Below are positions 9,908 to 32,518 of a DNA stretch of 64,000 nt, one piece after another. Positions within the stretch are counted from its first letter, which is position 1; the number at the start of each line of letters is the position of its first letter. Source of the DNA: Parabacteroides goldsteinii (lineage in GTDB: Bacteria; Bacteroidota; Bacteroidia; Bacteroidales; Tannerellaceae); assembly GCF_015550595.1 (NCBI RefSeq), contig NZ_JADNBB010000013.1:97497-161496 (forward strand), written 5' to 3'. The translations under genes were made by a program, and so were the position numbers. The notes under the pieces are model-generated. The model was not told where the DNA came from. It ran no database searches and worked only from the letters and a program-made list of their open reading frames with translations.

Positions 9908-9920
9908 GTGATCCGCCTGG
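9908..9920. repeat. Distal attachment site (tRNA-Lys 3' end remnant)
   Basis: GTGATCCGCCTGG is identical to the 3' end of the tRNA-Lys gene plus one flanking base. The match ends after CCTGG; the next bases (TTCATGAACC) only loosely resemble the T arm. It marks the outer edge of element B. Confidence 0.75.
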
Positions 9921-10157: not shown

Positions 10158-10170
10158 AACCTTTATCTTG

Positions 10171-11262: not shown

Positions 11263-11263
11263 G

Positions 11264-11286: not shown

Positions 11287-11416
11287 AACAATTAAATATA
11301 ATGATAGTATGTTTTTGAAATACATTCTTTTAGCTTAGTAGTGGTGAAAGTTCATAGAACACTCCTAAAGTATTCCTTTGAATTGAATAGTGTTATGCTA
11401 ATACTTGGTTCCGAAA

Positions 11417-11457
11417 ATCTGTACCTACTAATATTACGCAAATTGTATCTGTTTCCA
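11417..11457. promoter_or_regulatory. Putative MocR operator upstream of the aminotransferase
   Basis: Two direct repeats, ATCTGTACCT at 11417-11426 and ATCTGTTTCC at 11448-11457, start 31 bp apart in the promoter region of the aminotransferase gene. The same motif occurs as a 30-bp-spaced pair before the MocR gene at 14131-14170. MocR/GabR/PdxR regulators are known to bind spaced direct repeats, so these are good operator candidates. Confidence 0.55.
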
Positions 11458-11513
11458 TTTACCTTTTATGCTTTACTTTGCAATATTTTAGTTCTCAAAT
11501 ACATTTAATGATT

Positions 11514-14120: not shown

Positions 14121-14130
14121 AATTCACCTA

Positions 14131-14170
14131 ATCTGTATCCTGCAAATATACAAAAACTATATCTGTATCT
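14131..14170. promoter_or_regulatory. Putative MocR operator at its own promoter
   Basis: Direct repeats ATCTGTATCC (14131-14140) and ATCTGTATCT (14161-14170) are 30 bp apart, just upstream of the MocR start at 14120. The second copy continues as ATCTGTATCTACT, matching ATCTGTACCTACT at 11417 with one mismatch. The same architecture at both genes argues for a shared regulator. Confidence 0.6.
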
Positions 14171-14288
14171 ACTTTTGATTTAGAGTTACTTTTGCAAACT
14201 GATTTTAATGCTCTTCTTTGTATTCTAAATAAAAGGAAAATAGAGTATTGTATTTAGCCGTATAATATAAACCTATATAATAGATAAA

Positions 14289-15140
14289 ATGACAGTAAAA
14301 CAGCTTTCCAATGAACTGATATTGAAAATCAATGCAGAGATAGAAACATTTTGTATAGATAGTGATATATCTTCAAGTAAGGCTCTGTATATGATTGATT
14401 TCATCAGACCATTGTTTGAAGAACTAAGAGAGTATATACACAAATATAACTTTCGGGATAATGAGGAAGAGATAGACTTCTTTAAAAATAGCAAACCGTT
14501 AATTCTAAGTAAACTAATATACTACAATGATATTTATACGCTTGAATTAAGAAAGCCAAATGGCAATAAAGAGGTAGTCAAGGAGCATTACAAGAAAAAG
14601 CAATCGGCAATCGTAGACTTCTGTAATAATAATCTTGACTTCTATCAATATTATCGTTCCAAAGCAATACATTTGGATAAATATTACTTTCTCAGAGGGC
14701 ATGAGAACTACAAGTTATGCCATAATTGTGGCTTATTGGATAGAGATCCTTTGTTCTCGACCTGTTGTGATCATAGGGTAGCCAAGATGTTGGCTTATGA
14801 TATGTTGGAAATCTATTTGCATCAGAGATTACAAGATGTAGAGAGAACAGAAGTGATAGCAACCAGCCGAGCTTCTTTGCCTGATAATCCATTTCGATGG
14901 ACAGGAACTAAAGTTGCTGCTATTGAATTGGGATATGCTATATATGCTGCCGGAGTTCTAAACAATGGAAATGCTGATATAAAGGAAATAATGACCTATA
15001 TAGAGGCATCATTCAAAGTAGACTTAGGTGATTACTATCGTACTTATCTTACAATCAGGGAGCGTAAAAGAGATAGGACAGCCTTTCTTAATAGTCTTAT
15101 CGAAAAGCTCCTTCGGAAAATGGACGAAAACGACAATTAA
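14289..15140 (+). CDS. RteC-like protein
   Basis: A 283-aa protein resembling RteC, the regulator of excision in CTnDOT-type Bacteroides elements. The C-terminal part WTGTKVAAIELGYAIYAAGVLNNGNADIKEI and LGDYYRTYLTIRERKRDRTAFLN is characteristic. A CHNCGL...CCDH segment (about residues 140-160) could bind metal. RteC is known to activate excision genes; here no matching excision operon is present, so the gene is isolated. A second, frameshifted RteC-like gene lies in element A. Confidence 0.78.
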   Translation: MTVKQLSNELILKINAEIETFCIDSDISSSKALYMIDFIRPLFEELREYIHKYNFRDNEEEIDFFKNSKPLILSKLIYYNDIYTLELRKPNGNKEVVKEHYKKKQSAIVDFCNNNLDFYQYYRSKAIHLDKYYFLRGHENYKLCHNCGLLDRDPLFSTCCDHRVAKMLAYDMLEIYLHQRLQDVERTEVIATSRASLPDNPFRWTGTKVAAIELGYAIYAAGVLNNGNADIKEIMTYIEASFKVDLGDYYRTYLTIRERKRDRTAFLNSLIEKLLRKMDENDN

Positions 15141-15518
15141 TTTGCCTATAAAGTTTTACTAAATTATTTTCTCTTTTCGCAAGTTCCTCATAAACTATAT
15201 GGACTTTTGAAAAGAGAAAGTATTTTTTATCTGTATGCGAAAGATATAATGCAGTCTGCCAATCCTGCTATTTTGCAATAGTGCTTTCATACTATCTTGT
15301 AATCTTGCCATCTTGTAATCAAGAAAACAAGTTATCAAGAAATCAAGCTATCAATATTTCAAGAAAACAACATTGCAATACTTCACTTCAAAACTCATTG
15401 GTCGAGGAACGCCTAGCGGCAAGGGGCGGGACCACCCGTCCCGACGAGCGAATTATATTTAAATAAGCAAATGAATATTGTTTAATATTGAATGGTTGTT
15501 GGAGTAATTTGTGCTACA
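15141..15518. other. Gene-free region with oriT-like hairpin
   Basis: An AT-rich stretch with repeated ATCAAG-type motifs, then a GC-rich hairpin CGGGAC-CACCC-GTCCCG at 15427-15443 in an otherwise AT-rich setting. The segment TCAATATTTCAAGAAAACAA (15351-15370) recurs with one mismatch at 30374-30393 in element A, before an HTH gene. The GC-rich hairpin could be a transfer origin or a leftover of one, since relaxase genes usually lie beside such sites. No relaxase is present here. Confidence 0.35.
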
Positions 15519-16193
15519 TTACTTCTCGTTTGTTTTCTTTACTTCTCTTAATGTTAATGAATCAACAGTTTTTCCATTATAAGTTGTAGTCAATACTCTA
15601 CATTGTTTATTGGCAGGAACATCAACTAATGAGACTTCCTCTAATTCCATTTTAGTAATTACTCTTGTACATATTTCTCCATTATATAATTTCCCTTTTA
15701 TATGATTACATTTATTGTAGCTTTCATTGCATATTGAACAGTGGCTTTTTTTTACGATGCCACCAACGCTTGCAAACATCATTTCTGGGAAAAGTAATTT
15801 TTCATACCATTCAAGTCTTGTGATGTATCCATTTGCAGATATGGATTCATATGGGCAATTTCTAACTACACTTCCATAAGTGACTTGTGCCTTTACTAAA
15901 TTACTCCAAGCTTCGCTCATGTCATCCTCTTTTATATTTATGAGCATTTGCAACTCATACTGTACTGATTGTAAAGACAGATCAAGGCAAAAGGCGAGAT
16001 TAGCTTCATCACTTAATCCGTGTTCAATATATTTTCTTTTTAATTCTAACAAATTGTTTCTATATGTTTCTAGTGTTTCTATTTCTTCTTTTTGTATTTC
16101 GGAAGCAATAGTTATGAATGCTTTTTTTTGGGCAATAGATGCTACCTTATTGAATTCGCTAATTAGCAGGTTGGGGGGCAAAATATCTTTCAT
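15519..16193 (-). CDS. Unassigned cysteine-rich protein, second gene of cargo operon
   Basis: A 224-aa protein of unknown function. The N-terminal half is helical (about residues 10-110). Residues 152-175 hold a possible zinc site: Cys152, Cys155, Cys162, His164, Cys175 (HCSICNESYNKCNHIKGK). It is followed by EEVSLVDVPANKQC (185-198), a pattern also seen near the end of phage prohead-protease-like domains. Its ATG overlaps the stop of the upstream gene (ATGA), so the two are translationally coupled. It lies beside the integrase as element B cargo. A defence or phage-derived role is only a hypothesis. Confidence 0.6.
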   Translation of the reverse strand: MKDILPPNLLISEFNKVASIAQKKAFITIASEIQKEEIETLETYRNNLLELKRKYIEHGLSDEANLAFCLDLSLQSVQYELQMLINIKEDDMSEAWSNLVKAQVTYGSVVRNCPYESISANGYITRLEWYEKLLFPEMMFASVGGIVKKSHCSICNESYNKCNHIKGKLYNGEICTRVITKMELEEVSLVDVPANKQCRVLTTTYNGKTVDSLTLREVKKTNEK

Positions 16194-16672
16194 TTCATTG
16201 CTTTTATTATTTTGGGTAAGTCTTTTAAGCCTTCAGAGTCTCCGCTATAACTAATCCTCTTTATTTTTCCCTCTTCCTCTGTTTCGATATAAAAGTCTAC
16301 TTTAGCTGTCTTTTTACCAAATGAACCTTTGCAAAGATCATAGATATAATTTGATAATACATTTAAAGAGATAGAAACAATTGATGGGTTTTCTGTTAAT
16401 AGTGAAAGGCTAAAAAAGATTGCAGGTAGATAAATATCTGCATTTTTTCTAGTTCGATAGAGTTCAGTATCATTTCCTAATACAGTAATATCAAGGTTTT
16501 CCTTCCTGAAAATTTTGTTTAAATCGAGCATGCTATCTGTAAAAACAAAATCTTCTTTCCGCTTTACTTCTTCAATATTCTCTGGAAAGAAAGTTAATGT
16601 ACTTGGGAGTATTAAATTCAACTCTTCAAGTTTAGCCTGCAAATTAATATCTTCAATTTTATAATCCATCAT
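16190..16672 (-). CDS. Unassigned small protein, first gene of cargo operon
   Basis: A 160-aa protein with no recognised family. The N-terminal half looks globular (LPSTLTFFPENIEEVKRKEDF). The C-terminal half has helix SLNVLSNYIYDLCKG, a beta-hairpin with TAKVDFYIETEEEGKIKRISY, then SGDSEGLKDLPKIIKAMK. This strand-turn-strand plus helix is loosely like small adaptor components (effector-associated type) of bacterial conflict systems, but the match is weak. It overlaps the downstream gene by 4 bp and has an elaborate repeat-rich upstream region at 16680-16793. Confidence 0.55.
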   Translation of the reverse strand: MMDYKIEDINLQAKLEELNLILPSTLTFFPENIEEVKRKEDFVFTDSMLDLNKIFRKENLDITVLGNDTELYRTRKNADIYLPAIFFSLSLLTENPSIVSISLNVLSNYIYDLCKGSFGKKTAKVDFYIETEEEGKIKRISYSGDSEGLKDLPKIIKAMK

Positions 16673-16679
16673 TTATTTA

Positions 16680-16793
16680 TTTTTAAAACACCATTAGCAA
16701 AAGACTTGAATATTGACTCAAAAACTATTTCAGTATGTTAATGCGTTTTTAAAACATCATTTTACTGAAACTACTTTCAAGTCATTAGCAAAA
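16680..16793. promoter_or_regulatory. Repeat-rich control region of the two-gene operon
   Basis: This region lies just upstream of the operon. CATTAGCAAAA occurs twice in direct orientation (16692-16702 and 16783-16793). Between the copies GACTTGAA...TTTCAGTA (16703-16735) is mirrored by TACTGAAA...TTCAAGTC (16763-16783). TTTTTAAAACAYCATT also occurs twice (16680 and 16746). Nested direct and inverted repeats suggest a protein-binding control region. Confidence 0.5.
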
Positions 16794-16975
16794 ATACGAA
16801 TAATATGTTTACCATTGTAATTGGTCGTTTAAAAACTTTCTGATAAAATATCTGAAATGTCTTGAAAGTAAAGAGTGAGTTTGGAAGAAGTTGGGGATTT
16901 CTATTGATGAGTAGGATTAAGTTGAGTAATTTTTCTTTCATTGGAAACACGACTTCGGAGTGCTTTTCTAAAAAG

Positions 16976-17013
16976 GTTCAGAGCTGCTGGGATAAATCTC
17001 AGCAGCTCTGAAC
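16976..17013 (-). terminator. Terminator of element B integrase
   Basis: A perfect 14-bp stem (GTTCAGAGCTGCTG and complement) with a 10-nt loop, followed on the minus strand by CCTTTTTAG. It lies 46 bp beyond the integrase stop. Confidence 0.8.
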
Positions 17014-17059
17014 ACACCTTGCTGTTATCTGACGATAACTAATTTCAGTAACCTGAAAT

Positions 17060-18271
17060 TCATTTAGCAATATCTAGCTTTTGTGCTAACATTTCCATAT
17101 CATTGCTAACCTTTACATCGGTGATCCTCGCATATATTTGAGTGGCTCTGATATTGGTATGACCTAAGATTTTGGAAACAGTTTCGATAGGTACACCATT
17201 GCTTATCAGCACCGAAGTCGCACAAGAATGACGCGCAACATGAAAGGTCAGGTTCTTATTTATACCGCAAATGGAAGCAATTTCTTTCAAATAATCGTTT
17301 ACTTTTTGGTTACTTATAATCGGTAAAATCATTCCGTTTGGCAACTTGTCTTTGTATTTTTCAAGGATAGCTTTCGGTATTTCGAGTAGCCGAACATTGG
17401 AAGTTACATTCGTTTTGTGTCGTTTGGTCATTATCCACAAATTGCCATCGAATGAGATACGAATATTATCTTTGGTAAGCTCACATACATCAATGTATGA
17501 AAGTGCCGTATAGCAACTGAAAATGAATAGATCCCGTACATGTTCCAGCCTTTTAGAAGCAAACTTCTTATTATAAATGGTGGTTATCTCTTCCATTGTA
17601 AGATAATCCCTGTCTGTTTGCTCAAACCGTACCTTATAATTCCCGAAAGGATCAGCAGTAACCAACCCAGTGTTCTTTGCGAAGTTCACAACGGTTCTAA
17701 AGCGTTGTACAAACTTCATCGCTGTGTTGTGGGTACATTCGTGATGGTTCTTAATATACAGCAGGAAGTTATCAATGAACACCACGTTTATTTCTTTGAT
17801 AAGCATATCCGAAACTGAATACTTGAACTTCATAAACTCTATAAGACGTTTCTTTGTCAGTTCGTAACGGGAATAAGTTTTATCTGCCGTATTCATCTTT
17901 ACCTTCTGCAAGTATTGTTCATTGTGCATTTCAAAGAACTCTATTAAGGTTTTACCCCGTTCAATCTTACCTAAAAAGGCGTTTTTTACCCGTTCAGAGG
18001 TCACATAACCGTCTTGTTCCAACAAAGCATGATAATGTTGGTGTACGGTGCTGCGGATGCTATCTAACATGGTGTTGATACTTATTGCTTCGGCGCTTCT
18101 CCCTGCTGCCTTTCCTGCGCTGACGCTCCAATTAGCGGGATTTATCTCCATTTGGGTGTTGAACTGCGACACAATTTGGTCGATGGTTATGCGTGCGATG
18201 ATTGGTGCATTGCCGTTCTTCTTTGCTGCATTTCGTTTTACGAAAAATAATAGTTTGAAAGTTGTTCTCAT
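17060..18271 (-). CDS. Tyrosine integrase of element B
   Basis: A 403-aa Bacteroidetes-type integrase with an arm-binding N-terminal domain (about 1-100), a SAM-like core-binding domain (about 105-210) and a catalytic domain. Catalytic boxes: FHVARHSCATSVL, KILGHTNIRATQIYARI with the nucleophilic Tyr. At the usual Arg I position it has SCYTALSYIDVCEL, with no arginine, as known for IntDOT-like enzymes. It is transcribed away from the inner attachment site at 18538-18556 and presumably recombines the tRNA-Lys 3' end. Confidence 0.9.
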   Translation of the reverse strand: MRTTFKLLFFVKRNAAKKNGNAPIIARITIDQIVSQFNTQMEINPANWSVSAGKAAGRSAEAISINTMLDSIRSTVHQHYHALLEQDGYVTSERVKNAFLGKIERGKTLIEFFEMHNEQYLQKVKMNTADKTYSRYELTKKRLIEFMKFKYSVSDMLIKEINVVFIDNFLLYIKNHHECTHNTAMKFVQRFRTVVNFAKNTGLVTADPFGNYKVRFEQTDRDYLTMEEITTIYNKKFASKRLEHVRDLFIFSCYTALSYIDVCELTKDNIRISFDGNLWIMTKRHKTNVTSNVRLLEIPKAILEKYKDKLPNGMILPIISNQKVNDYLKEIASICGINKNLTFHVARHSCATSVLISNGVPIETVSKILGHTNIRATQIYARITDVKVSNDMEMLAQKLDIAK

Positions 18272-18371
18272 AATCTCATTTTTTTAATTGCAAAATTACT
18301 TTGATTGATTGAAAATGAGACATTTGCAGCCAAGACAAATGTGGACAGAGGTTAGCCAATTTTGGACATTC

Positions 18372-18458
18372 CGTGACCTGTTTTTCTGGAATTTGGATTG
18401 GTCACGAATTGGTCATAGAAGTGTGTCTTTTCGTGACCTTTTCGTGTCTTTGGTCACG
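18372..18458. repeat. Four alternating CGTGACC sites beside the integrase
   Basis: CGTGACC at 18372-18378 and 18432-18438, and its complement GGTCACG at 18400-18406 and 18452-18458, form two inverted pairs between the integrase start and the attachment site. A degenerate fifth copy GGTCATA lies at 18411. The location fits arm-type integrase or excisionase binding sites. The equivalent region in element A has a different inverted pair at 32295-32331. Confidence 0.6.
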
Positions 18459-18476
18459 GACATTATACAAAGAAAA

Positions 18477-18508
18477 AACTCCTGCAATACCTTGATATTG
18501 TAGGAGTT
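18477..18508 (-). terminator. Terminator beside the middle attachment site
   Basis: Hairpin AACTCCTGCAATA / TATTGTAGGAGTT (one mismatch, 6-nt loop), followed on the minus strand by a T-rich run. Its position relative to the attachment repeat mirrors the hairpins at 9872-9902 and 32389-32421. It would have served as tRNA-Lys terminator when element B alone occupied the site. Confidence 0.7.
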
Positions 18509-18537
18509 GTCTTCTTTAAGTCTTGTTTTGACTTGTC

Positions 18538-18556
18538 TTTCAGTGATCCGCCTGGG
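18538..18556. repeat. Middle attachment site (tRNA-Lys 3' end copy)
   Basis: TTTCAGTGATCCGCCTGGG is identical to the 3' end and downstream flank of the tRNA-Lys gene at 32443-32461; the next base differs. It is the boundary shared by the two stacked elements. Confidence 0.85.
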
Positions 18557-18718
18557 ATTCTCCTAAGAGAGTTACCACGCTGATTTTTAAAACTTTATAT
18601 TTTCAGCTTCAAGCATATCCCATGAATTATCCCACTAATTTGCTACGTGCTTTTGCGGTAGTTTGCTCATGGAGAATACTAAGGGCAAAGATAGTCAATT
18701 TATTTAATACATTCAATT

Positions 18719-21700
18719 TTAAATATGAGAATTACGTATATCATCAACAGATGTATTGTTACAACAATTATTATACCAATCCGTTGCAAGGGCTTTTAAA
18801 TTCTTTCCTTTCCTTTTTATGTCCATTTTTGATAAAAATGTAACTGTGCATGATAGTAGGTCCATATCAATCTCTTCGACGAATAATCGTTTATACACAT
18901 CTATAATCATATTCTTACGCAAAGTTACCACCTCTATATCTTTTTCAAATAATGATTTTTTTTGTATCTGTTCTGATATATTTACTATTAAATTTTTAGA
19001 TTTTGCACTTTCTTTTATTTTTATTGTAAATTCATTTGAGAATACGAGATCATATATTTCAATGAGTTTGTTCTCATTTTTATAACAATCACATCCTATA
19101 TAGAAACTGTTATCATCATCAGTTGTCATGTTGTATTCTTGGAAATTTACTTTTATTTTATTCTCAACTAAAGAAAGTCTAAGTATAAATAATTCTTTTA
19201 GAAAGAGTGCGTTTCTTCCTAGAAAATAATACAACTCGTTGAGTCTAATAATTTTCATTTTCGCCTTACTCCTTTTCAATCTTCCAATATAGGCTAGAGC
19301 CTGTTTATTTAATATATTATTGGCATTCCCTGTTAGAGTAAAATCTTTTAAAAATCCCTTATCTTTATATTTGAGACTTACTATTCTTTCTCTAGCAACA
19401 TCTAATTGAACATAAGATGCTGGAAAATTATATAGAACATTAGCCTTTATATGAACATCATCATTAACAATACCTTTATATTTTCCTGCAATTTTAATCC
19501 CTTCATTCATAATTATTGCACGATCATTTCCTTGAAAATCTACTATAACTCCATATTTATACTTCGTTATTCCTTCTTCTATTTTCTCAAAAGGCAAATC
19601 TACTATTTCGTCTTCTTCAAATGGAATAAATAGGATATCTTTTTTAGATTTATATGATTCAAATAGATTATTAGGAGCAATTTCTAATAGTTTATTGTTG
19701 ATTTCATCATCTATGACAATTTTTAAACTAGGATTTAAGACTGTATTAGTTACATATCTGATTATGTTATTAAAAGCAAATTTATTTTTGTCATCTTCAT
19801 ACAAAGTGATTTCTGTACCAGCCGTTTGAATCGGGGCTTTTTTAACAAAAAAACATCCTTCATAGTTTGGTATATGAAGATCTATCCCTTCTTTATCCTC
19901 TTCAATACTTTTAGTTAAAACAGACACCTCTTTACAAGCTAAAAAAACAGAAAGAAATCCAATCCCAAAATTACTAATAGGTTTTGATTTTATATCTATA
20001 TCTTCCAACAACTCTTCATAATCGTCAGATGTATAATAGCTTCGACCTATGCTTGTAAAATATCGTTCAATTTTATATAAATCCATTCCTATTCCGTTAT
20101 CTCTTATTTTTATACATTTAATATTTTTCCCATTGTTTTGTACTTCTGTGAATAAGATATATACAGAGTCGTCAAAAATATCATGTGTAATCTTCTTTCT
20201 TAATGAAATAGCATCGATTGAATTTTGTATTAATTCTCTTATAAAAACCTCTTTTTGTTTATACAAGTGCTCACCTGTAAGTAGAGGTAATAATTTAGGG
20301 ATGTATGCTTCAAAATTATAATTATCTAGATCGTACCCGAATTTTTCAACTTTTGGTCTGATATAATATAACTTTAATCCTATTTCTTTAAAAGCATCTT
20401 CGATTTTTAATATGCGATCTTCAAAGTTTTTTATAATTAGCACTACCGCTTTGTGTACCGTAGGTTCTTTACACTTTAAATTAACAATAGCACTTCTTCG
20501 GTCTGAATCTCCTACAAAATTTATAGATGCTATAGGAATGTTTATATGAAAATGATTCTCTTCTAACTTAAAATTAACTTTATTCTTAATACCCTCATTT
20601 TTAAAATAAAATTCCCCATACCTACTCAATGCTAAATATAAATCAACAAAATGTATCGAAGATATTATATAAGAAGTTGTTTTTTTTAGTCTAAAAAAGG
20701 ATTCATTTTCAAAAAAAAGCTTGAATTTTTTATTGTAGTTATCGCTTCTAATTATTTCCATCAATTCGCATAAGCTTTTCATGTACTCTTCATCATTAAT
20801 AATATTGCTTAGATGTTCTTTTACAGCAATAAGCATTGTGTTATTATTCTCGCCTCCTATTTTATTGTTAAAGGCTAAGATGCGATAGTGAATGCACAAA
20901 AGCATAATGTAGATAATCTCACTTTTTTGAGTTAGAAATTTTCTGGTATCATTAAATACAGTGAGTGTACTACTTACATAACTAATGATATTATTGATAT
21001 TGGCATAATATGATATGTTATCATTTTCTTGTATATCATAAATATATTTGTTATATAAATTGTTATTTTTAACTTTTAATATATCTAACAATTCAACATA
21101 TCCAATAGATGGCGTTTCTTGTGGTGGAACAGATATTGGAATTGTACTTTGACATTCCATTCCTATATATGAATATTTAGTTACCAAAGCGTCTGTTACT
21201 TCGTTTAAAGAGTGAACTTCAACAACTTCAAATGATTTTTCTCCTCTATCTGACCCAATGGTTCCTGCTGAAAAAACATGCATAATCTTATTAGGATTGT
21301 TGTAAAACTTATTGGTCACAATTGGTCGAGCTATTGAGGCATGTTTATGCCCATGTAAAATTATGGATACATTATTAGCAAAAAAATAATCAACAACAGC
21401 AGCAAAATTGCGTATCATGCTACTATCACCATATTTATTATATATTTCAGGAAAAGGATATATATGATGATGAAAAGCAACAATAACTCTATAACTTTCT
21501 ATATCAGTAATATTTTGCAGTAAATTATCAAATGTATCAGTTAGCTGTTCCATTGATATTTCCCCATAATCATCAAATTCATATTTGGATGACAGAAGTA
21601 ATGATTTTATTTCATTTTCCCTCTCTGTTCCCAGTGCTAAAGATGAAAGATTTAGCTTGTCAATCCATTGCCGATCCTGATTTGTTATTTGTTGGACTAA

Positions 21701-22162
21701 AGCACAAGAATTCAATCCTATTATTACTATTTTTTTATCATATTCAATTCTAGTTGTTGACAAATGAATAGGATCATATAAAATTTCGTATCTATCTAAT
21801 GTATAAAATGAAATTAGAAATTTCTTATATAAAGAATATATATCTTTATCATCATTTCTGATTATATCATGATTGCCAGGAACAAAGATAAAATCGTTTT
21901 CTGTTATAATTTTGTTATTTCCAAGAGATAGTTTATTTAGTCTTGTCATTAGCTTTTTGAAAAAGCCAATTGCTAATTCTAATATTTTTTCTCTATCTAG
22001 AGTTTTTCCATAAAAAATATCGCCAGAACAAATTATGTAGTCTATATACTGTTCGTTCTCCTTTAAATCATTGCATATGTTGATATGGAAACTTTCAACG
22101 CCTGAGTTGTCCAATTCACCAAAGTGAAGATCTGATATATGTAGACAAGATATTGTGCCCAT
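18719..22162 (-). CDS. Metallophosphoesterase fused to Hsp90-like ATPase
   Basis: A 1147-aa protein starting at the ATG at 22162. Residues 1-300 are a calcineurin-like phosphoesterase with all metal motifs: DLH (11-13), GD (47-48), GNHD (96-99), HHH (231-233) and GHKH (271-274). Residues about 300-600 are helical and unassigned. Residues about 635-790 are a GHKL ATPase of the HtpG/Hsp90 type: RELIQNSIDA (N box, Glu643/Asn647), DNGIGM (688-693), NFGIGF (731-736) and AGTEITLY. An Hsp90 middle-like region follows (FPASYVQLDVARERIV). The reaction and partners are unknown. It is a single-gene cargo unit at the end of element A, very AT-rich, with its own -7 box. A defence role is inferred from context only. 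Confidence 0.85.
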   Translation of the reverse strand: MGTISCLHISDLHFGELDNSGVESFHINICNDLKENEQYIDYIICSGDIFYGKTLDREKILELAIGFFKKLMTRLNKLSLGNNKIITENDFIFVPGNHDIIRNDDKDIYSLYKKFLISFYTLDRYEILYDPIHLSTTRIEYDKKIVIIGLNSCALVQQITNQDRQWIDKLNLSSLALGTERENEIKSLLLSSKYEFDDYGEISMEQLTDTFDNLLQNITDIESYRVIVAFHHHIYPFPEIYNKYGDSSMIRNFAAVVDYFFANNVSIILHGHKHASIARPIVTNKFYNNPNKIMHVFSAGTIGSDRGEKSFEVVEVHSLNEVTDALVTKYSYIGMECQSTIPISVPPQETPSIGYVELLDILKVKNNNLYNKYIYDIQENDNISYYANINNIISYVSSTLTVFNDTRKFLTQKSEIIYIMLLCIHYRILAFNNKIGGENNNTMLIAVKEHLSNIINDEEYMKSLCELMEIIRSDNYNKKFKLFFENESFFRLKKTTSYIISSIHFVDLYLALSRYGEFYFKNEGIKNKVNFKLEENHFHINIPIASINFVGDSDRRSAIVNLKCKEPTVHKAVVLIIKNFEDRILKIEDAFKEIGLKLYYIRPKVEKFGYDLDNYNFEAYIPKLLPLLTGEHLYKQKEVFIRELIQNSIDAISLRKKITHDIFDDSVYILFTEVQNNGKNIKCIKIRDNGIGMDLYKIERYFTSIGRSYYTSDDYEELLEDIDIKSKPISNFGIGFLSVFLACKEVSVLTKSIEEDKEGIDLHIPNYEGCFFVKKAPIQTAGTEITLYEDDKNKFAFNNIIRYVTNTVLNPSLKIVIDDEINNKLLEIAPNNLFESYKSKKDILFIPFEEDEIVDLPFEKIEEGITKYKYGVIVDFQGNDRAIIMNEGIKIAGKYKGIVNDDVHIKANVLYNFPASYVQLDVARERIVSLKYKDKGFLKDFTLTGNANNILNKQALAYIGRLKRSKAKMKIIRLNELYYFLGRNALFLKELFILRLSLVENKIKVNFQEYNMTTDDDNSFYIGCDCYKNENKLIEIYDLVFSNEFTIKIKESAKSKNLIVNISEQIQKKSLFEKDIEVVTLRKNMIIDVYKRLFVEEIDMDLLSCTVTFLSKMDIKRKGKNLKALATDWYNNCCNNTSVDDIRNSHI

Positions 22163-22282: not shown

Positions 22283-23068
22283 TTACAGCTTTCGTCCTTT
22301 TTTCTTTTGAATTCTTAATTTGGCCATTTTTTCTTTAAAACAGAATGGAAACTCAACTTCCAGCACAAGAGAGGTAAAAGGATCAAAATTCTGTTCTCGT
22401 AATTTAAGTTGTTCGGAGATTGAACCGTTCTTCATCGTATTGTGATAGTCGAATGATTCCGGTTGTTGACGGTCGTAGTCAAATAGTTTATCAAAACCTT
22501 GTTCCGCTTGTTGGAATAGGTTTACACGATCAAAGCCACCTTTAATTATTCCGTTCTTAGTGTTCTTATGATTGGTAAGTGGTGACGACTTCTTTTTATT
22601 GGTTTGGTCTTTCCGGCTCACAATCAAATGACAGTGCATATTCAATTCATTATCTGAACGGTTACGATCAAAATGAATTTTGCCATAAAACTTTATATCC
22701 GAAGCAGATAGTTCTTTATTGAAGTTCTTGGCATATTCAGGAATAAATACTTTACGAATATATCTTTTCATTGCTTCGGCTTGTTCCTGTTCTGTATTAC
22801 CCATTGCTCTAAGTTCTTTTTCCGATGGGCAGACATGGATAGCGTAGAACTTAGCATCTGTTTTTAGAAGTTGTCCGATATTGGTATCTATATCTTTTAT
22901 GACCTTTGATTTATAGATGTCATCCTCCGTCAGATTGAAAAATCCATCAATATAGGTTCCTTTCTCCATCCGTTCCAAATCCTCATGTTCCAAATAATTT
23001 GCTAGTTGTCGGCTACTACCAGCATTATTATATGTTCCGCTTGATGGCGGAGCAAAATCTATGTGCAT
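22283..23068 (-). CDS. MobB-like mobilisation protein (DUF5712)
   Basis: A 261-aa protein of the Bacteroides mobilisation family DUF5712. It starts MHIDFAPPSSGTYNNAGSSRQLANYLEHED. The HxH-type segment NMHCHLIVSRKDQTNKKKSS is the likely metal-binding centre of a relaxase-type nuclease. Four bp separate it from bfmA upstream, so the two form an operon read away from the oriT-like region. The tail is lysine-rich (KLRIQKKKGRKL). It presumably acts with BfmA in DNA nicking at oriT. Confidence 0.82.
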   Translation of the reverse strand: MHIDFAPPSSGTYNNAGSSRQLANYLEHEDLERMEKGTYIDGFFNLTEDDIYKSKVIKDIDTNIGQLLKTDAKFYAIHVCPSEKELRAMGNTEQEQAEAMKRYIRKVFIPEYAKNFNKELSASDIKFYGKIHFDRNRSDNELNMHCHLIVSRKDQTNKKKSSPLTNHKNTKNGIIKGGFDRVNLFQQAEQGFDKLFDYDRQQPESFDYHNTMKNGSISEQLKLREQNFDPFTSLVLEVEFPFCFKEKMAKLRIQKKKGRKL

Positions 23069-23072
23069 AATC

Positions 23073-23657
23073 CTATATATTTATCAGATTGCTGATTTCG
23101 GCTTTTAGATTCTCTTTCCTTTTGCTATCCATCACCCCGCAAGCAGAAAGTTCCGAATAGAGTTGTATAAGGTGAAGTAGTTTTTTATAATCCCGTTGGT
23201 GTATTTGATAGAGTGCATTAATCTGTTTGGACTGATTGTTTATAACATCGGCATGATTGCCGAACTGCTCACTTAACTTTTTAAGCACGGCTGTTTGTTT
23301 CTCCTGACTGGCTTCCAGTTGAGAGAGAATAAGAGTTTCCAGAGTTTTGCCGATAGCATTGAAGCGCAAAGCGATAGAATTTGTTGCCCGTATCATGGGA
23401 TTCAGTTGTTCTTCCTCATAGTGACGGATAAAGCGGATAATATCATCCTGCCTCTTATTTATTTTCGCCAGTTCTGATTTTACAGATTCAGGGGCTTCGG
23501 ATGGGTTGATATGTGCCTTATCTATATATCCGAATGCCAACTTTACAACTTCGCTCTTTTTCAGTGAATAGCGTTTGCATATCTTCTCTACCAAAGCTGC
23601 CGTTTCCTTGTCTATGGAAATGGTAGTGAATATCGTTTTTCGACTGCTATTTGGCAT
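23073..23657 (-). CDS. BfmA/BtgA-type mobilisation protein
   Basis: A 194-aa protein of the BfmA/BtgA family that assists relaxase binding at the transfer origin. The N-terminus (TISIDKETAALVEKICKRYSLKKSEVVKLAF) looks like a ribbon-helix-helix DNA-binding domain; the rest is coiled coil. It starts directly beside the hairpin-rich region at 23761-23839 and is coupled to the MobB gene. Confidence 0.85.
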   Translation of the reverse strand: MPNSSRKTIFTTISIDKETAALVEKICKRYSLKKSEVVKLAFGYIDKAHINPSEAPESVKSELAKINKRQDDIIRFIRHYEEEQLNPMIRATNSIALRFNAIGKTLETLILSQLEASQEKQTAVLKKLSEQFGNHADVINNQSKQINALYQIHQRDYKKLLHLIQLYSELSACGVMDSKRKENLKAEISNLINI

Positions 23658-23941: not shown

Positions 23942-24274
23942 TCAGGGCTGGTTTGCTAACTGATTGGCTTTTTCAAACTGCTTGTAGGTTTGAAAATCAG
24001 CATATTCGCGAACGAAAGCCCGAATATCACTTGCTCTGTAGTATGTTTTCCGTCCAATGGTAAAGTAGGGAAGTACACCTTTTGCCCGATAGCGTTGTAG
24101 GGTTCTGAAAGATGCTTTCAACAGAAAGGCTAAGTCTTGATTATCCAACAGCCTTTCGTTTTCATCGAATACAGTATCGGTATTGACAAGAGATTTCAAG
24201 TCTTGCCCGATTTCGGTGAGTTTTTTGGATAGCTTCTCCATCCACTTCTCGAAGTTTTCGTTGTCTATATACAT
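23942..24274 (-). CDS. HTH (MerR/excisionase-like) protein
   Basis: A 110-aa protein with a helix-turn-helix of the HTH_17 type: LLDNQDLAFLLKASFRTLQRYRAKGVLPYFTIGRKTYYRASDI (about 43-85). N- and C-terminal flanks are helical. Such proteins act as excisionases or regulators in Bacteroides mobile elements. It lies between the oriT-like region and the RteC-like pseudogene, on the same strand. Confidence 0.75.
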   Translation of the reverse strand: MYIDNENFEKWMEKLSKKLTEIGQDLKSLVNTDTVFDENERLLDNQDLAFLLKASFRTLQRYRAKGVLPYFTIGRKTYYRASDIRAFVREYADFQTYKQFEKANQLANQP

Positions 24275-24360: not shown

Positions 24361-24982
24361 TTATAGATAGCCTTTCTTTTCACTTTCTTCGATAATGGCT
24401 TTGCGAAGTAAATCCAAAAACTCCGTGCGTTTATTGGCTTTCCGGCAAATTACATTCTCATGCTTTTTATGAATGTCCCCCAACTTGATGTTGAAAAGCC
24501 ATTCAAAGGTTCTACCAATTTCCGCTAGTGGTGATTCTTTTCCAGTATAAGTAACTACTCTTTTCGTAAGAAATAATCCACTAACCAGTTCCATGATTTT
24601 AACGAGATAGGTTTCATCTGTTAGATACAATGGTGAGGATGGCAAGTTGTTATTTCGGTTCTGAAACGAACTTGGATATTGGATTTTTAGATTGAACAGT
24701 TCTAGTTCTGAATTGACAATAGCCAGTGTCTTTTGTAAGAACAGCTTTTTAAGCGCATTTTTCCCCCTGTCCGTAAAGAGGTGCTGTTTCAAGTGAAGCT
24801 ATCTCAATACGGGTAGCTACAAGAATCCGATAAGTAGTTGAATAGTCATTTTTATTACTCACGGTTCTAATTTGTTCAACAAATTCACCATAGGCATCTC
24901 GCATTTCTTCATTAGTAACTTCCTGTGAGGCTTTAGACAATAGTCCAAATATCCTCATTTGTAATAAATCATTCATAAGCAT
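24361..24982 (-). pseudogene. Frameshifted RteC-like gene
   Basis: Two overlapping minus-strand frames, 24749-24982 (N-terminal 77 aa) and 24361-24792 (C-terminal part), look like one gene. If one G is removed from the run of five G around 24757-24761, the frames join as APLYGQGKNALKKLFLQ and give a single protein of about 207 aa. The C-terminal half (IGRTFEWLFNIKLGDIHKK...KRTEFLDLL) matches the RteC pattern seen at 14289-15140. A sequencing error or phase-variable run is possible; the second frame would otherwise start at a TTG. Confidence 0.65.
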
Positions 24983-25068: not shown

Positions 25069-27696
25069 TTAAAAATATATTTTCCAACTTATGCTTGGAA
25101 TAATTGGCGCATAGCGTTTTTCCTCAATAGCGTTTGTTGCAATATTGTATGCGTATCCTGTCTGTTTGAAACCATTGGCATTTAAAATCATAAATGAAAA
25201 CTCATGAGCTATTTTTTTCTTATTAACCCGAAGACGGAGAGTTAAATCTGTAGTAAATGAATTGGGTAGTTTTAAACTGTATGCATGTGCTTCATCTTCT
25301 TTGATTCCATGTTCTATTTGTGACTTTTCGTTGTCGATTGGAGTATAACGATAGCCACCTTGATATGTTAAGCGTATATTGGCACTGAATACTTTATTCT
25401 TATTTTTGCCAAATATCCACTCTTTTCCAACTAAGCCATTTGTGATAAAGCGTTGATCCATTCTCGTATTTCTCCAAACATTGTCTCCTCCCATATACTC
25501 GGATTTAAATAGTGATCCTGTAAGTAAAGCATACCAGCCATTTCTCAAATAACGCTCTAATGTAATATCAAGTCCATAGTTACGCCCTTTTCCATTATTA
25601 ATGAGCATTTTGTCTAGTCCGTAGCCATTGTAATTTAAAATGGAGAATGAAGAGTTTGGTTCTACTGGTATTGAGTACAAATATTGAAAGTACGGTTCTA
25701 TTTTCAGATAAAGATTATCTGTTATCCTATTTCCATAGGATAGCGAAAAATGATGTGCTTTACTAAAATCCAGATCTTTATTAACTAGCTTATTTCCTGT
25801 TTTAGGGGTTTGAACATAGTAATAATCTAATCGACTGCGTGTACTATTGAGACCATACGCAAAAGATAGTGTTTGATTTTTTTGTAGTTTCCACTTTATG
25901 CTAAAACGTGGTTCTAAAGTCCAATGATTGTTTAAACCAAAATACTGTCCAGTTAAACCAATACTGGCATCTATGTTTTTATGAAGGCTAAAAACAGAAC
26001 TAGTGAATGCCGAGAATGTAAAATCGGTATGACTTCCATCTGCTATTTGGTGCATAGGCTTATACAAACCAAAATCATCACTTATGTTAAAATCAAGATC
26101 ATAGCTCATTCGAGTGATTGTAAACCCAGTACGATTAAAATGTTTTTTGCTTATTTTGCTGTGTAGATAAGAGTTTAGAATTATATCTGTATTGCTGTTT
26201 TTCATATCTGCCATCCGATGAAAAAACATTTTATCGTCTGCTTGATCAATTATAGCATGAACTTTTGTATAAGTTGTAGCTAAAGATGTTTTAATGTACG
26301 AATTTTGTCTACAATATATTTTATGCCCAATTCCAAACATTCCTTTAGTAAACGTATTATCTGATTTTTGCTTATCAGATGTATATTCCCAATTCTCTGG
26401 ATTTTCTTCATTTTTCTGCAAAACTTTGTCCAATAATCCCAGCCCCCATACTGTAAAAATTCCAGCTTTCTTTGTAGGGAAATTGAATTTAAAAGCTAAG
26501 TCTTGATAATTAAGCCCCTCATCAGTTCCACTAATAGCATCTGATAGCCCAGAGAAAGAGTATCTATAGTTAAATAAATAGGAACTATTATTCTTTTTAT
26601 TAATAGGACCTTCTGAGGCTAAATCAAGCCCCCAAACACCTAGTTGAAAAGCATGTTCGTAATTTTGGCTATTTCCCGTTCGCATGGACATATCAAATAT
26701 ACCTGCTAGCGCATTATTGTACTCTGCGGAGAAAGCACCATTGAAGAAATCCGAGTTTCCCAATACATTAGAACTCAAACCACTCAATAAACCTCCTCCT
26801 AATCCTGTCATATCTGCATAATGTGTAGGATTAGATATCTCTACACCTTCCATACGCCATTGAGAATATTGTGGAGAGTTTCCTCTTACTACAAGAGCAT
26901 TTGTGTTTATTCCTCCTGCTACTCCGGCAAAAGAGGAGACCAAACGTGCCGGATCATCAAAGCCACCAGCAAAACGACTTGCTTCTTCAGTTGTTAAAAC
27001 TCGTCCTCCGGTTAATGCCATTGGATTTAATGCCACTTCCTTATTTGTATTGGGGCGTATTACTACTTCGGATAATAAATGTATATCCTCTTTAAGGGAA
27101 ATATTCAAAATGACTTCTTTAGCTGAAGTGACTACCAATTCATTAATGGCATGAGGTTCATAACCTAAGCAGCTTGTTTTAATATTGTATCTGCCTATTG
27201 AAACGTTCTTTATTGTGAAACGCCCAAGACTATCGCTGACGGCAGTTAATTCAGGATTATCGACAACACTAATTAGGGCAGAGTACACAGGTTGTCCAGA
27301 TATGGCATCTATAATGCTTCCTTTTATTATTTGTGTGACCTTTTTTGTCTTTATAGTTTGCTTCTCTATCGATATAGGATAAATGATGATGTGATACCCG
27401 TTTATCTTATAGGTATGCTTAGTTTCTTTCAAAGCTATTTTCAATACAGTATTTATATCTGTATTCTTTAAAGAAAGAGAGATTCTTTTACTTAGATCCA
27501 AAGCCGATTGTTCATAGGCTATACTGTATGTCGTTTGCTTCTCTATTTGTTCAAAAAGAGCTTTTAATGAGATATTTTTATCTTGTATCGTTATCTTATT
27601 TTCTTTACTTTGAGCAATAACCATATATGGAAGAAATGCAAAGAATAGAATTATAGCAATCTTATATGATTGATTGTTACTGATAAATTGATTCAT
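25069..27696 (-). CDS. TonB-dependent receptor with STN signalling domain
   Basis: An 875-aa outer membrane receptor. Signal peptide about 1-28; STN domain about 32-108 (ISLKALFEQIEKQTTYSIAY); carboxypeptidase-regulatory-like domain about 125-205; plug domain about 225-340 (ALVVRGNSPQYSQWRMEGVE); then the beta-barrel ending in aromatic IYF. The STN domain implies transmembrane signalling to the FecR protein and sigma factor encoded just upstream. No SusD gene follows. The ligand is unknown. It is cargo of a mobile element, unusual for a receptor of this kind. Confidence 0.88.
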   Translation of the reverse strand: MNQFISNNQSYKIAIILFFAFLPYMVIAQSKENKITIQDKNISLKALFEQIEKQTTYSIAYEQSALDLSKRISLSLKNTDINTVLKIALKETKHTYKINGYHIIIYPISIEKQTIKTKKVTQIIKGSIIDAISGQPVYSALISVVDNPELTAVSDSLGRFTIKNVSIGRYNIKTSCLGYEPHAINELVVTSAKEVILNISLKEDIHLLSEVVIRPNTNKEVALNPMALTGGRVLTTEEASRFAGGFDDPARLVSSFAGVAGGINTNALVVRGNSPQYSQWRMEGVEISNPTHYADMTGLGGGLLSGLSSNVLGNSDFFNGAFSAEYNNALAGIFDMSMRTGNSQNYEHAFQLGVWGLDLASEGPINKKNNSSYLFNYRYSFSGLSDAISGTDEGLNYQDLAFKFNFPTKKAGIFTVWGLGLLDKVLQKNEENPENWEYTSDKQKSDNTFTKGMFGIGHKIYCRQNSYIKTSLATTYTKVHAIIDQADDKMFFHRMADMKNSNTDIILNSYLHSKISKKHFNRTGFTITRMSYDLDFNISDDFGLYKPMHQIADGSHTDFTFSAFTSSVFSLHKNIDASIGLTGQYFGLNNHWTLEPRFSIKWKLQKNQTLSFAYGLNSTRSRLDYYYVQTPKTGNKLVNKDLDFSKAHHFSLSYGNRITDNLYLKIEPYFQYLYSIPVEPNSSFSILNYNGYGLDKMLINNGKGRNYGLDITLERYLRNGWYALLTGSLFKSEYMGGDNVWRNTRMDQRFITNGLVGKEWIFGKNKNKVFSANIRLTYQGGYRYTPIDNEKSQIEHGIKEDEAHAYSLKLPNSFTTDLTLRLRVNKKKIAHEFSFMILNANGFKQTGYAYNIATNAIEEKRYAPIIPSISWKIYF

Positions 27697-27758
27697 TTTT
27701 GTATATTTGTATGTTGATTATTCATTTAACTTCACGGTTTGATGATATTTGACTTTTC

Positions 27759-27796
27759 AGAACTGGGTTGAGGGTCTCAAGCTGCTTCCCAGTTCT
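27759..27796. promoter_or_regulatory. Hairpin between FecR and receptor genes
   Basis: AGAACTGGG / CCCAGTTCT stem with a 20-nt loop between the fecR-like and TonB receptor genes. The T run follows only on the plus strand; on the minus strand, where the genes are read, it is a hairpin without T run and may lower receptor transcription or stabilise the upstream mRNA. Confidence 0.45.
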
Positions 27797-27821
27797 TTTT
27801 TTATTCATAGGCAAAACGTTC

Positions 27822-28775: not shown

Positions 28776-28849
28776 TTTGTTGCATTTTACTATATATACA
28801 AGCAAGTGGTAAGAATCTCAGTGAAAAGATAGCTGTTTTTTTTGAAAAA

Positions 28850-30982: not shown

Positions 30983-32203
30983 TTATATAGCCAATTCCGA
31001 CAGACAGCTATTTACTTTTTGCATATCCTTGAAAATATTCTGATCCAGTACTCGTGCATAGTGTTTGGTTACGCTTGTATCTGCGTGTCCTAACATCTTA
31101 GCAACATTTTCCATACTCACGCCATTCGCTAGGCATATAGAGGTGGCATAGGAATGTCGGGCTGAATGTGTGCACAGATTTTTCTGCAACCCGCATACAT
31201 CGGCAATCTCTTTCAAATAGCTGTTCATGCGCTGATTGCTCAAAACAGGCAATAGTTTTCCGGTACATTCTGCCACATTTTTATACTTTTCAATTATAGA
31301 AATTGCCACAGGTAGCACAGGTATATTACACATGATTTTTGTCTTTTGACGGTTCTTCCTTATCCAAAGTTCCCCTTTATTGTCCCTTACTAAGTGTTCA
31401 GGAGATAAATCTTTCACGTCACTGAACGCCAAGCCAGTAAATATGCAAAAGACAAAAACGTCCCGTACCTGTTCTACTCGTTTAATTGTAAACTCTTTAG
31501 CGAGAATGATTTTAATCTCGTCCATCGTCAGAAATTCGGGATCAGTTTCTTCCAGTTTGAAGCGGTAGTAAGCAAATGGATCTTTCTTTATCCAGTCGTT
31601 TTCCAGAGCAATGCGGATAATTTTCTTCAAATTCTTCAATCGGGTGATAGCGGAGTTCTGCGCGCAACCTTTTTCAATCTTCAAGAAAGCATCGAACTTA
31701 GAAATGAAGTTGGCTTCCAAGTTGTTCAGGGCAATATCCGATAACTGATATTCTTTCTTGATGAATTCCTCCAAATATCGGGTAGTGGTTTCATACCGTT
31801 GAACGGTTTTACTAACAAAGTCTTTGCCGATCAGCTTACGACTTTGTTCGTTGTGTTCTCTGAATATTTGCAAAAGGGTTTTGCTTTCTTCATCTACACC
31901 ATAATACAGTTTTCTCACAAGATCAACGGTGATAACCTTGTCGGAAGTTTCCAGTTCCCTATAAATTTGGTGTATGCGTGAGCGTGTGATTTCTATGTAA
32001 TGGTTCAGTTCCACTGACATACGGTCTTTTCCTTTTGAATTCTCTTTTGCTTGATTCCATAGGTTTACGGGACAACTTCTTTTGATAGAAATGTCTACCA
32101 TACAGCCGTTTACAGTGATTCTCATGCACACAGGTGCTTCTCCGTTCTTTAATAACTTGGCTTTTTTGATAAAGAACAAAACAGAAAATGATTTTCTAGC
32201 CAT
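30983..32203 (-). CDS. Tyrosine integrase of element A
   Basis: A 406-aa integrase with the same layout as the element B enzyme: arm-binding N-terminus, SAM-like core-binding domain and catalytic domain. Catalytic boxes: THSARHSYATSICL, KMLGHADTSVTKHYARV. The Arg I position reads IFTGLAFSDVKDL without arginine, as in IntDOT-like enzymes. It starts 242 bp from the tRNA-Lys 3' end and is read away from it. The two island integrases are related but clearly distinct, so the elements inserted independently at the same site. Confidence 0.9.
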   Translation of the reverse strand: MARKSFSVLFFIKKAKLLKNGEAPVCMRITVNGCMVDISIKRSCPVNLWNQAKENSKGKDRMSVELNHYIEITRSRIHQIYRELETSDKVITVDLVRKLYYGVDEESKTLLQIFREHNEQSRKLIGKDFVSKTVQRYETTTRYLEEFIKKEYQLSDIALNNLEANFISKFDAFLKIEKGCAQNSAITRLKNLKKIIRIALENDWIKKDPFAYYRFKLEETDPEFLTMDEIKIILAKEFTIKRVEQVRDVFVFCIFTGLAFSDVKDLSPEHLVRDNKGELWIRKNRQKTKIMCNIPVLPVAISIIEKYKNVAECTGKLLPVLSNQRMNSYLKEIADVCGLQKNLCTHSARHSYATSICLANGVSMENVAKMLGHADTSVTKHYARVLDQNIFKDMQKVNSCLSELAI

Positions 32204-32421: not shown

Positions 32422-32445
32422 GCTTGATTTTTCTTTTGTTTTCAG

Positions 32446-32518
32446 TGATCCGCCTGGGGTTCGAACCCAGGACCCCATCCTTAAAAGGGATGTGCTCTAC
32501 CTGCTGAGCTAGCGAATC
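32446..32518 (-). tRNA. tRNA-Lys (anticodon TTT)
   Basis: A 73-nt tRNA: acceptor stem GATTCGC / GCGGATC with discriminator A, D arm GCTC...GAGC, anticodon arm CATCC-CTTTTAA-GGATG and T arm CTGGG-TTCGAAC-CCCAG. CCA is not encoded. Its 3' end is the attachment site of both elements; the insertion leaves the gene intact because the elements restore the 3' end. Confidence 0.97.

What the first reader, a model, noticed from the sequence alone, without database searches (positions are those of the whole stretch)
18719..22162. Metallophosphoesterase-Hsp90-like ATPase fusion as island cargo
Seen: one 1147-aa protein combines an intact calcineurin-like phosphoesterase (DLH, GD, GNHD, HHH, GHKH motifs) with an intact Hsp90/HtpG-type GHKL ATPase (N box, DNGIGM, NFGIGF) and an Hsp90 middle-like region, joined by about 300 unassigned residues. 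Known: GHKL ATPases and metallophosphoesterases both occur in phage-defence systems, and cargo at the edge of a mobilizable element is often defence. Inferred: a single-gene system in which ATP-driven conformational change of the Hsp90 part gates a phosphoesterase acting on nucleic acid, nucleotide or protein phosphate. I know of no described system with this architecture.
Basis: partly seen in the sequence, partly recalled or inferred. Interest (0 to 1): 0.9.

Follow-up and report, generated by a model that had tools for sequence, protein, structure and literature searches.

The report
Hsp90-gated phosphoesterase, likely phage defence
A mobile DNA element in a bacterium carries one gene whose protein joins a calcineurin-like phosphate-cutting enzyme domain to an Hsp90-type ATPase domain, in the slot where most examined sister elements carry genes resembling known or candidate anti-virus genes, so it is likely a new form of single-protein phage defence in which the Hsp90 part would switch the enzyme on.

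Summary
On the minus strand, 22162..18719 encodes a 1147-aa protein with a calcineurin-like metallophosphoesterase (MPP), a middle region predicted to fold, and an Hsp90-type N+M ATPase. In 113 sequences of at least 1000 aa (the window protein and 112 homologues) the MPP ligand set is intact in 110 and the ATPase set in 113. The gene is the outermost gene of a 13.9-kb tRNA-Lys-integrated mobilizable element with att repeats; a close relative has the empty site. In sister elements the slot after the relaxase is rich in defence-like genes: 9 of 10 tested match PADLOC at E<=1e-10. The window MPP's top NCBIfam family is DS-9A, a published anti-phage metallophosphatase (10 of 10 members match; 3 of 10 control MPPs match weakly, never best). 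Nearest published logics: DS-8 (metallophosphatase-NACHT) and VcSduA (GHKL ATPase-nuclease). Best reading: a single-gene defence protein, a new variant of metallophosphatase immunity with an Hsp90-type switch. No function was tested; substrate, trigger and direction of gating are unknown. My ten literature searches found no described MPP-Hsp90 system.

The parts
18719..22162 (-). MPP-Hsp90 fusion gene (1147 aa from ATG 22162; the ORF extends to a TTG at 22198)
21122..22162 (-). calcineurin-like phosphoesterase domain, residues 13-359
   Evidence: Pfam, DS9_1_antiphage top NCBIfam family of this stretch, fold match to YydB model/Rv0805/Lmo2642/GpdQ
20339..21121 (-). middle region, residues 360-620: helical bundle, then a small alpha/beta unit; weakly HD-like/PPX-like
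19745..20326 (-). Hsp90-type GHKL ATPase domain, residues 625-818
19205..19744 (-). Hsp90 middle-domain-like region, residues 819-998, with invariant R936
18722..19204 (-). poorly conserved C-terminal region, residues 999-1159; candidate sensor (inferred)
   Evidence: mean identity to the window protein 0.05-0.11 per 40-residue block for 1001-1159
18538..18560 (+). att repeat at the far end of the element (22 of 23 nt of the tRNA-Lys end)
32440..32462 (+). att repeat at the tRNA-Lys 3' end
32445..32518 (-). tRNA-Lys (ttt), integration target
30983..32203 (-). tyrosine integrase of the element, next to the tRNA
22283..23068 (-). MobB-type relaxase (DUF5712), 261 aa, directly upstream of the fusion gene
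   Evidence: MobB below its NCBIfam cut-off
23073..23657 (-). BfmA/BtgA-type mobilization protein
23942..24274 (-). HTH_17 protein
24361..24792 (-). RteC-like protein (C-terminal part of the profile)
9908..9920 (+). third, 13-nt att copy: outer end of a second, tandem element and left junction against the empty site
17060..18271 (-). tyrosine integrase of the second, tandem element

Best explanation
This is likely a single-gene anti-phage defence protein in which an Hsp90-type ATPase module would switch on an attached phosphoesterase that is predicted to cut a nucleotide or nucleic acid during infection. Anatomy (shown by sequence and model): an N-terminal MPP related to DS-9A and DS-8, a conserved middle region, an Hsp90-type GHKL plus middle domain with the ATPase motifs intact, and a fast-diverging C-terminus. 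Inferred steps: (1) the variable C-terminus and/or clamp cavity recognises a phage product; (2) ATP-dependent closure of a dimer, relayed through the middle region, repositions the paired MPP domains; (3) the MPP hydrolyses a cyclic or modified nucleotide, or nucleic acid, and stops phage growth. The gene travels as cargo of a tRNA-Lys-integrated mobilizable element (shown).
For: Effector kinship: DS9_1_antiphage is the top NCBIfam family of the window MPP (1.5e-21) and is hit by 10 of 10 members of A2 (window plus nine; best 6e-33); DS8_antiphage by 4 of 10. Of 10 other MPPs of the same genome (of 14 others found), 3 hit DS9_1, at E 1.6e-3 to 3.6e-3, never best. Published: metallophosphatase catalytic mutants of DS-8 and DS-9A, and an ATPase-site mutant of DS-8, lose defence (PMC13092281, section 7 read). 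Switch precedent: VcSduA, a GHKL ATPase fused to a nuclease, needs both sites (PMC12137116, section 12 read). Context: slot next to MobB; 9 of 10 sister slots match PADLOC at E<=1e-10; in this same genome a sister slot holds a protein matching a cytidylate cyclase (E 3e-64 to 8jsf). The gene sits directly between Gabija GajAB and PD-Lambda-4_A in a Tissierellales MAG (L011). Both active sites conserved: 110 and 113 of 113. Rare and patchy: 1 of 38, 1 of 395, 1 of 394, 1 of 391, each being the genome the sample was centred on. Transfer between lineages: the window protein pairs with a partial Proteocatella MAG protein (a Bacillota genus, recalled), support 100/99, and an archaeal member falls inside an otherwise clostridial clade. 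The genome has a separate HtpG-like locus (687-aa frame, C52).
Against: No activity or protection was measured. DS-9A and DS-8 curated cut-offs are not reached (76.8 of 420 and 28.7 of 790 bits). The protein itself has no PADLOC match at E<=1. Of 13 homologue loci, I saw strong matches to named systems in L011 and L003 and candidate or methylase families in L005 (ten proteins chosen by eye); one search scanned 90 neighbours of all 13 but shows 25 of 84 families without naming the member, so others may exist (PDC-S05 at 1.2e-139 is unplaced). L007, L012 and L015 read as ordinary chromosome. All 10 MPP members also match SbcD (best 4.6e-12), so a nuclease is open. Domain placement in the model is uncertain (pTM 0.53), and no dimer was modelled.
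Confidence: 0.55

Rival explanations
1. The same switch, but the MPP is a nuclease of SbcD/Mre11 kind that cuts phage DNA, so the protein works as an ATP-gated restriction-like nuclease rather than a nucleotide hydrolase.
For: SbcD (TIGR00619) matches 10 of 10 MPP members, and the best PDB profile hits are SbcD/Mre11 (E 8.7e-6). VcSduA is a GHKL ATPase-nuclease.
Against: The best SbcD profile hits cover only about the first 50 positions. DS9_1 matches better, and the closest listed folds over the whole domain are a YydB model, Rv0805, Lmo2642 and GpdQ; the last three I know as nucleotidyl or glycerophosphodiester phosphodiesterases.
Confidence: 0.2
2. A toxin-like maintenance or exclusion device of the mobile element: the MPP is harmful when released and the Hsp90 part holds it in check; phage defence is incidental.
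For: Cargo of a mobilizable element; single gene without an obvious antitoxin beside it.
Against: Tested sister slots mostly match defence families; a homologue lies between Gabija and PD-Lambda-4 genes.
Confidence: 0.1
3. A regulator that degrades cyclic-nucleotide signals of other defence systems (the genome also has a cytidylate-cyclase-like element), not a stand-alone system.
For: Fold close to class III cyclic-nucleotide phosphodiesterases such as Rv0805; cytidylate-cyclase-like protein in the same genome.
Against: No recurrent cyclase was seen by eye among neighbours of the 13 loci, though the L013 neighbour has a weak nucleotidyltransferase match beside a HEPN domain; in the window the gene sits alone in its slot.
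Confidence: 0.08
4. A specialised chaperone or stress protein without immune role.
For: Hsp90 N+M architecture.
Against: A separate HtpG-like locus is present; occurrence is patchy and mobile; a phosphoesterase with conserved metal site is fused to it in 110 of 113 sequences.
Confidence: 0.07

Closest known systems
DS-8 (PMC13092281): metallophosphatase + NACHT, one protein, validated by its authors
   Same: One polypeptide with a related MPP effector and an ATP-using switch domain; NCBIfam DS8_antiphage hits 4 of 10 MPP members
   Different: Switch is a Hsp90-type GHKL plus middle domain, with no NACHT match; far below the DS8 cut-off (28.7 of 790 bits)
DS-9 (PMC13092281): metallophosphatase DS-9A + HAD phosphatase, two genes
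   Same: Top NCBIfam family of the window MPP (1.5e-21), hit by 10 of 10 members
   Different: No HAD partner gene beside the window gene; ATPase fused in; 76.8 bits against a cut-off of 420
VcSduA, Shedu type I-D (PMC12137116): GHKL ATPase + DUF4263 nuclease
   Same: GHKL ATPase and catalytic effector in one polypeptide; both sites needed there
   Different: Effector is a PD-(D/E)xK nuclease; similar proteins were earlier annotated paraMORC3, not Hsp90; domain order reversed
HtpG / TRAP1 / Hsp90
   Same: N domain and middle domain fold and motifs, invariant R936
   Different: Fused to an MPP; HtpG cut-off not reached (90.1 of 371 bits); no convincing Hsp90 C-terminal dimerization domain seen
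HD-CE domain (PF24391) + Hsp90-type GHKL proteins, e.g. L134 (808 aa)
   Same: GHKL part clearly related, including the stretch just before the N-box (hhalign 97.6%, E 4.1e-12)
   Different: N-terminal domain is HD-CE, no MPP; the window linker shows no sequence relation to it (0.12%)
YydB (PDB 9a6c_B, an integrative model from crosslinking and deep learning)
   Different: Separate protein; the entry pairs it with YydD; function not given there

Membership tests
Calcineurin-like metallophosphoesterase superfamily | Metal-ligand motif blocks D-x-H, GD, GNH, H, GHxH | tested here: met
   intact in 110 of 113 sequences of at least 1000 aa; 2 are N-truncated, 1 has H110Q
Calcineurin-like metallophosphoesterase superfamily | Fold | tested here: met
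Hsp90/HtpG family | Bergerat (GHKL) motifs and middle-domain arginine | tested here: met
Hsp90/HtpG family | NCBIfam HtpG curated cut-off | tested here: not met
   90.1 bits against 371
Hsp90/HtpG family | C-terminal dimerization domain | tested here: inconclusive
   some alignments reach residue 1149, but to chain positions up to about 550 that I take to be middle domain; the C-terminus is poorly conserved
DS-9A (NF053862) | NCBIfam curated cut-off | tested here: not met
   76.8 bits against 420
DS-9A (NF053862) | Adjacent HAD phosphatase gene | tested here: not met
   the window neighbours are MobB and an integrase; not tested at the other loci
DS-8 (NF053861) | NACHT domain fused to the metallophosphatase | tested here: not met
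   no NACHT in the Pfam scan at E<=1; 28.7 bits against 790
Shedu / VcSduA | DUF4263 nuclease domain | tested here: not met
   absent from the Pfam scan at E<=1
Shedu / VcSduA | GHKL ATPase fused to a catalytic effector | tested here: met
HD-CE-GHKL proteins | HD-CE domain (PF24391) | tested here: not met
   not among Pfam hits of 12 linker sequences; hhalign to one HD-CE protein 0.12%
tRNA-integrating mobilizable element | Relaxase, tyrosine integrase, direct repeats from the tRNA end, empty site | tested here: met
   the empty site lacks both tandem elements together
Anti-phage defence system | Measured phage protection | not testable with these tools
   needs an experiment

The most novel reading that the evidence does not exclude
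An Hsp90-family chaperone clamp has been turned into an immune switch: the clamp reads a phage protein as a client, and its ATP cycle fires a covalently attached cyclic-nucleotide-type phosphodiesterase. This would be a third wiring of metallophosphatase immunity next to NACHT (DS-8) and HAD (DS-9), with homologues in Bacteroidota and Bacillota and partial ones in a Desulfobacterales MAG and an archaeal MAG.
Probability: 0.4. Interest if true: 0.82.

Novelty: new variant of a known kind. Interest (0 to 1): 0.63.

Why it matters
It would show that Hsp90-type clamps can act as infection switches, add an architecture to the newly recognised metallophosphatase branch of bacterial immunity (whose substrates are unknown, and which its discoverers link to human SMPDL3A), and give a compact single-gene system in which sensor, switch and effector can be dissected. 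The relaxase-adjacent slot is also a practical place to look for further undescribed defence genes.

Tried and rejected
Plasmids and phages: tblastn found partial matches only, 168 and 14 records, none covering 80% of the query; the rows listed fall in the ATPase part and are HtpG where named. Viral contigs: no relative. Genome survey by even sampling found no new member beyond the centre genomes; (class, 395 genomes) a second hit, 84 residues with a stop at 3.8e-4, was dropped as spurious. With the alignment query often only 2 candidates per genome were scored, so these are lower bounds. The genome-contig scan kept 80 of 115 loci; rows from L017 on match only the ATPase part, and I read them as HtpG-type loci. 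I used 13 homologue loci: L003-L007 and L009-L016. L008 was left out because it is a second contig of the L006 genome. L016 covers only the ATPase part, and L014 only the part from the middle region on.

Different architectures sharing the core: the second protein search (P0001 540-960; best 120 of 1089 listed) and the third (P0075 1-350; best 120 of 212 listed) showed both domains in nearly all rows. Of the listed rows without a precomputed Metallophos hit, I read P0052 and P0061 and P0123, P0124, P0128, P0130, P0135; each starts inside or after the MPP, with no other N-terminal domain. P0023 was tested by motif only and P0181 not at all. My regex motif test was too strict (47 of 136 failed) and was replaced by the column test.

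Neighbour enrichment: 90 neighbours of the 13 loci gave 84 PADLOC families at E<=1e-20 (25 shown), against 2 for 90 neighbours of 13 htpG-type control loci. The control list was cut by hand from 181 ORFs to those nearest the match. The 84 are inflated by redundant Gabija models and include generic hits from a ClpB-like protein and a sigma54-type regulator, so I rest little on it.

Sister-slot test: 20 regions fetched of 44 other MobB matches listed. Rule: the longest ORF among those printed (at least 100 aa, first seven per region) after MobB and before the att core or integrase where one was seen, for the first ten loci by MobB rank with cargo. L148 (small ORF, then a transposase-like ORF), L153 and L155 (integrases next) were passed over. 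For L149, L150, L157 and L159 the far end of the slot was not seen. L163 and L165 gave no PDB hit.

Literature: ten searches of the held open library found no MPP-Hsp90 system. Subscription papers are mostly absent and supplements could not be opened, so DefensePredictor's full list of predictions was not checked.
Full report
WHAT IS THERE. The fusion is real and on the minus strand (18719..22162; ORF to 22198). Pfam finds Metallophos and HATPase_c_3 above cut-off. NCBIfam adds HtpG (1.2e-25) and DS9_1_antiphage (5e-20), both below their cut-offs. PADLOC finds nothing at E<=1. The first protein search gave 267 proteins at E<=1e-3; of the 120 listed nearly all carry both Pfam domains.

CONSERVATION. 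In 113 sequences of at least 1000 aa (the window protein and 112 homologues, identity to it 31-60%, median 35%), all eight MPP sites are kept in 110 and all eight ATPase sites, R936 included, in 113. The three failures are two N-truncated sequences and one with H110Q. Conservation peaks in the middle and ATPase regions (mean identity 0.53-0.70 per block for residues 561-680) and collapses at the C-terminus (0.05-0.11 for 1001-1159). A conserved effector and switch with a diverging end is what I would expect of a defence protein with a variable sensor; that reading is inference.

THE ELEMENT. A 22-of-23-nt copy of the tRNA-Lys end (32440-32462) lies at 18538-18560; no other place in the window reaches 16 of 23. 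Between them are an integrase beside the tRNA, a sigma/FecR/TonB-like set (by eye), an RteC-like protein, BfmA, a MobB relaxase and, outermost, the fusion gene. A third, 13-nt copy at 9908 marks a second, tandem element with its own integrase (17060-18271). In G037 of the same genus the two flanks are contiguous: the alignment jumps from window 9920 (92.1% identity over 3.2 kb) to 32439 (96.0% over 1.66 kb), with the att core at the join, so both elements are absent there. The fusion gene has 27.3% G+C against 41.0% for the window.

THE SLOT. Relatives of this MobB occur in 29 of 197 genomes, the own genome included. I fetched 20 downstream regions and, by a rule given under Tried and rejected, tested the longest slot ORF of ten: NsnA 7.8e-130, PbeA 2.3e-14, beta 6.4e-38, PD-T7-5 2.6e-12, MTase_II 1.4e-103, none, QatC 2e-98, PDC-M60A 2.8e-55, NsnA 3.1e-54, PDC-M68B 4.3e-34. 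That is 9 of 10; five of the nine are matches to named systems or a methylase at E<=1e-30, two are PDC families, which I take to be PADLOC's candidates, and two are weak. In this same genome another MobB element carries a protein matching a cytidylate cyclase (3e-64 to 8jsf). The att core recurs beyond MobB in 6 of 20 regions. The fusion gene therefore sits in what looks like a defence-cargo slot.

OTHER LOCI. In L011 (Tissierellales MAG) the gene is directly flanked by GajA (2.9e-194) and GajB (2.2e-226) on one side and PD-Lambda-4_A (2.2e-85) on the other. In L003 (Chitinophaga) a protein matching LmuA (1e-117; also RTasMBL, 1.2e-78) lies about 7.6 kb downstream. In L005 a PDC-S06-like protein (1.1e-37) follows the gene. 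In L013 (Dysgonomonas) a relaxase and a HEPN protein precede it. L007, L012 and L015 show genes that read as ordinary. The gene is rare: 1 of 38 genus genomes, 1 of 395 in the phylum sample, 1 of 394 and 1 of 391 in two Bacillota samples, each time the centre genome itself. The tree joins the window protein to a partial Proteocatella MAG protein (100/99) and puts an archaeal half-gene inside an otherwise clostridial clade; MAG binning errors are possible.

KINSHIP OF THE EFFECTOR. DS9_1_antiphage is hit by 10 of 10 MPP domains and DS8_antiphage by 4 of 10. SbcD is also hit by 10 of 10, less strongly at best (4.6e-12 against 6e-33). Ten other MPPs of the same genome hit DS9_1 in 3 cases, at 1.6e-3 or worse, never best. 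In print, DS-8 (metallophosphatase-NACHT) and DS-9 (metallophosphatase plus HAD) protect against phage and need the metallophosphatase site (PMC13092281: abstract, section 7 and passages seen). VcSduA shows that a GHKL ATPase fused to an effector can be a single-gene system needing both sites (PMC12137116: section 12 and passages seen). A 2020 eLife study predicted calcineurin-type phosphodiesterases as nucleotide effectors in conflict systems (PMC7159879: passages seen).

MECHANISM. Shown: domain make-up, conservation, mobility, slot. Inferred: trigger recognition by the C-terminus or clamp, ATP-dependent closure as the switch, nucleotide or nucleic-acid hydrolysis as output. Not shown: any activity. 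I rate defence as the function at about 0.7 and the full gated mechanism at 0.55. A nuclease output is the main rival.

NOVELTY. It fails membership of DS-8, DS-9A, Shedu, HD-CE-GHKL and HtpG on at least one defining feature each, but works, if the reading is right, like DS-8 with an Hsp90-type module in place of NACHT. I therefore call it a new variant of a known kind.

Noticed in passing
window 9908-18560: A second element in tandem at the same tRNA-Lys site, with its own integrase, RteC, a PDC-S02 protein (10171-11325, PADLOC 6.3e-140) and two GntR/aminotransferase-type genes (by eye).
   Followed up: partly
window 25069-29404: A sigma factor, FecR-like anti-sigma and TonB-dependent receptor-like set (by eye) lies inside the 13.9-kb element between integrase and mobilization genes, unusual cargo for so small an element.
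   Followed up: no
L147, L149-L152, L156-L159, L162: The slot just after MobB in related mobilizable elements looks like a defence hotspot (Qat, Nsn-like, beta-like, methylase, cytidylate cyclase); undescribed genes there are candidates.
   Followed up: partly
L157:1401-6295: A 1080-aa PDC-M60A-like protein followed by two receiver-domain-like proteins (by eye) in the same slot; a DefensePredictor figure legend lists HATPase and REC among domains of predicted, unvalidated systems.
   Followed up: no
L134:108-2531: An 808-aa protein with an HD-CE domain and a related Hsp90-type GHKL part; its HD part also matches an RT_UG24 defence profile (1.5e-13). Function unknown.
   Followed up: partly
L014 and L099: In a Methanimicrococcus MAG the gene is in two pieces on two contigs, the ATPase piece on a contig with a tRNA-modification gene that reads as archaeal, the pieces near virus-like or integrase-like genes (by eye).
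   Followed up: partly
window 22283-23068: MobB here is 261 aa, against 290-323 aa in the 20 sister loci; its 3' end appears shortened at the junction with the cargo gene.
   Followed up: no
window 15519-16193: A weak, below-cut-off match to the caudovirus prohead protease S78 family (E 0.0013) in the second element.
   Followed up: no
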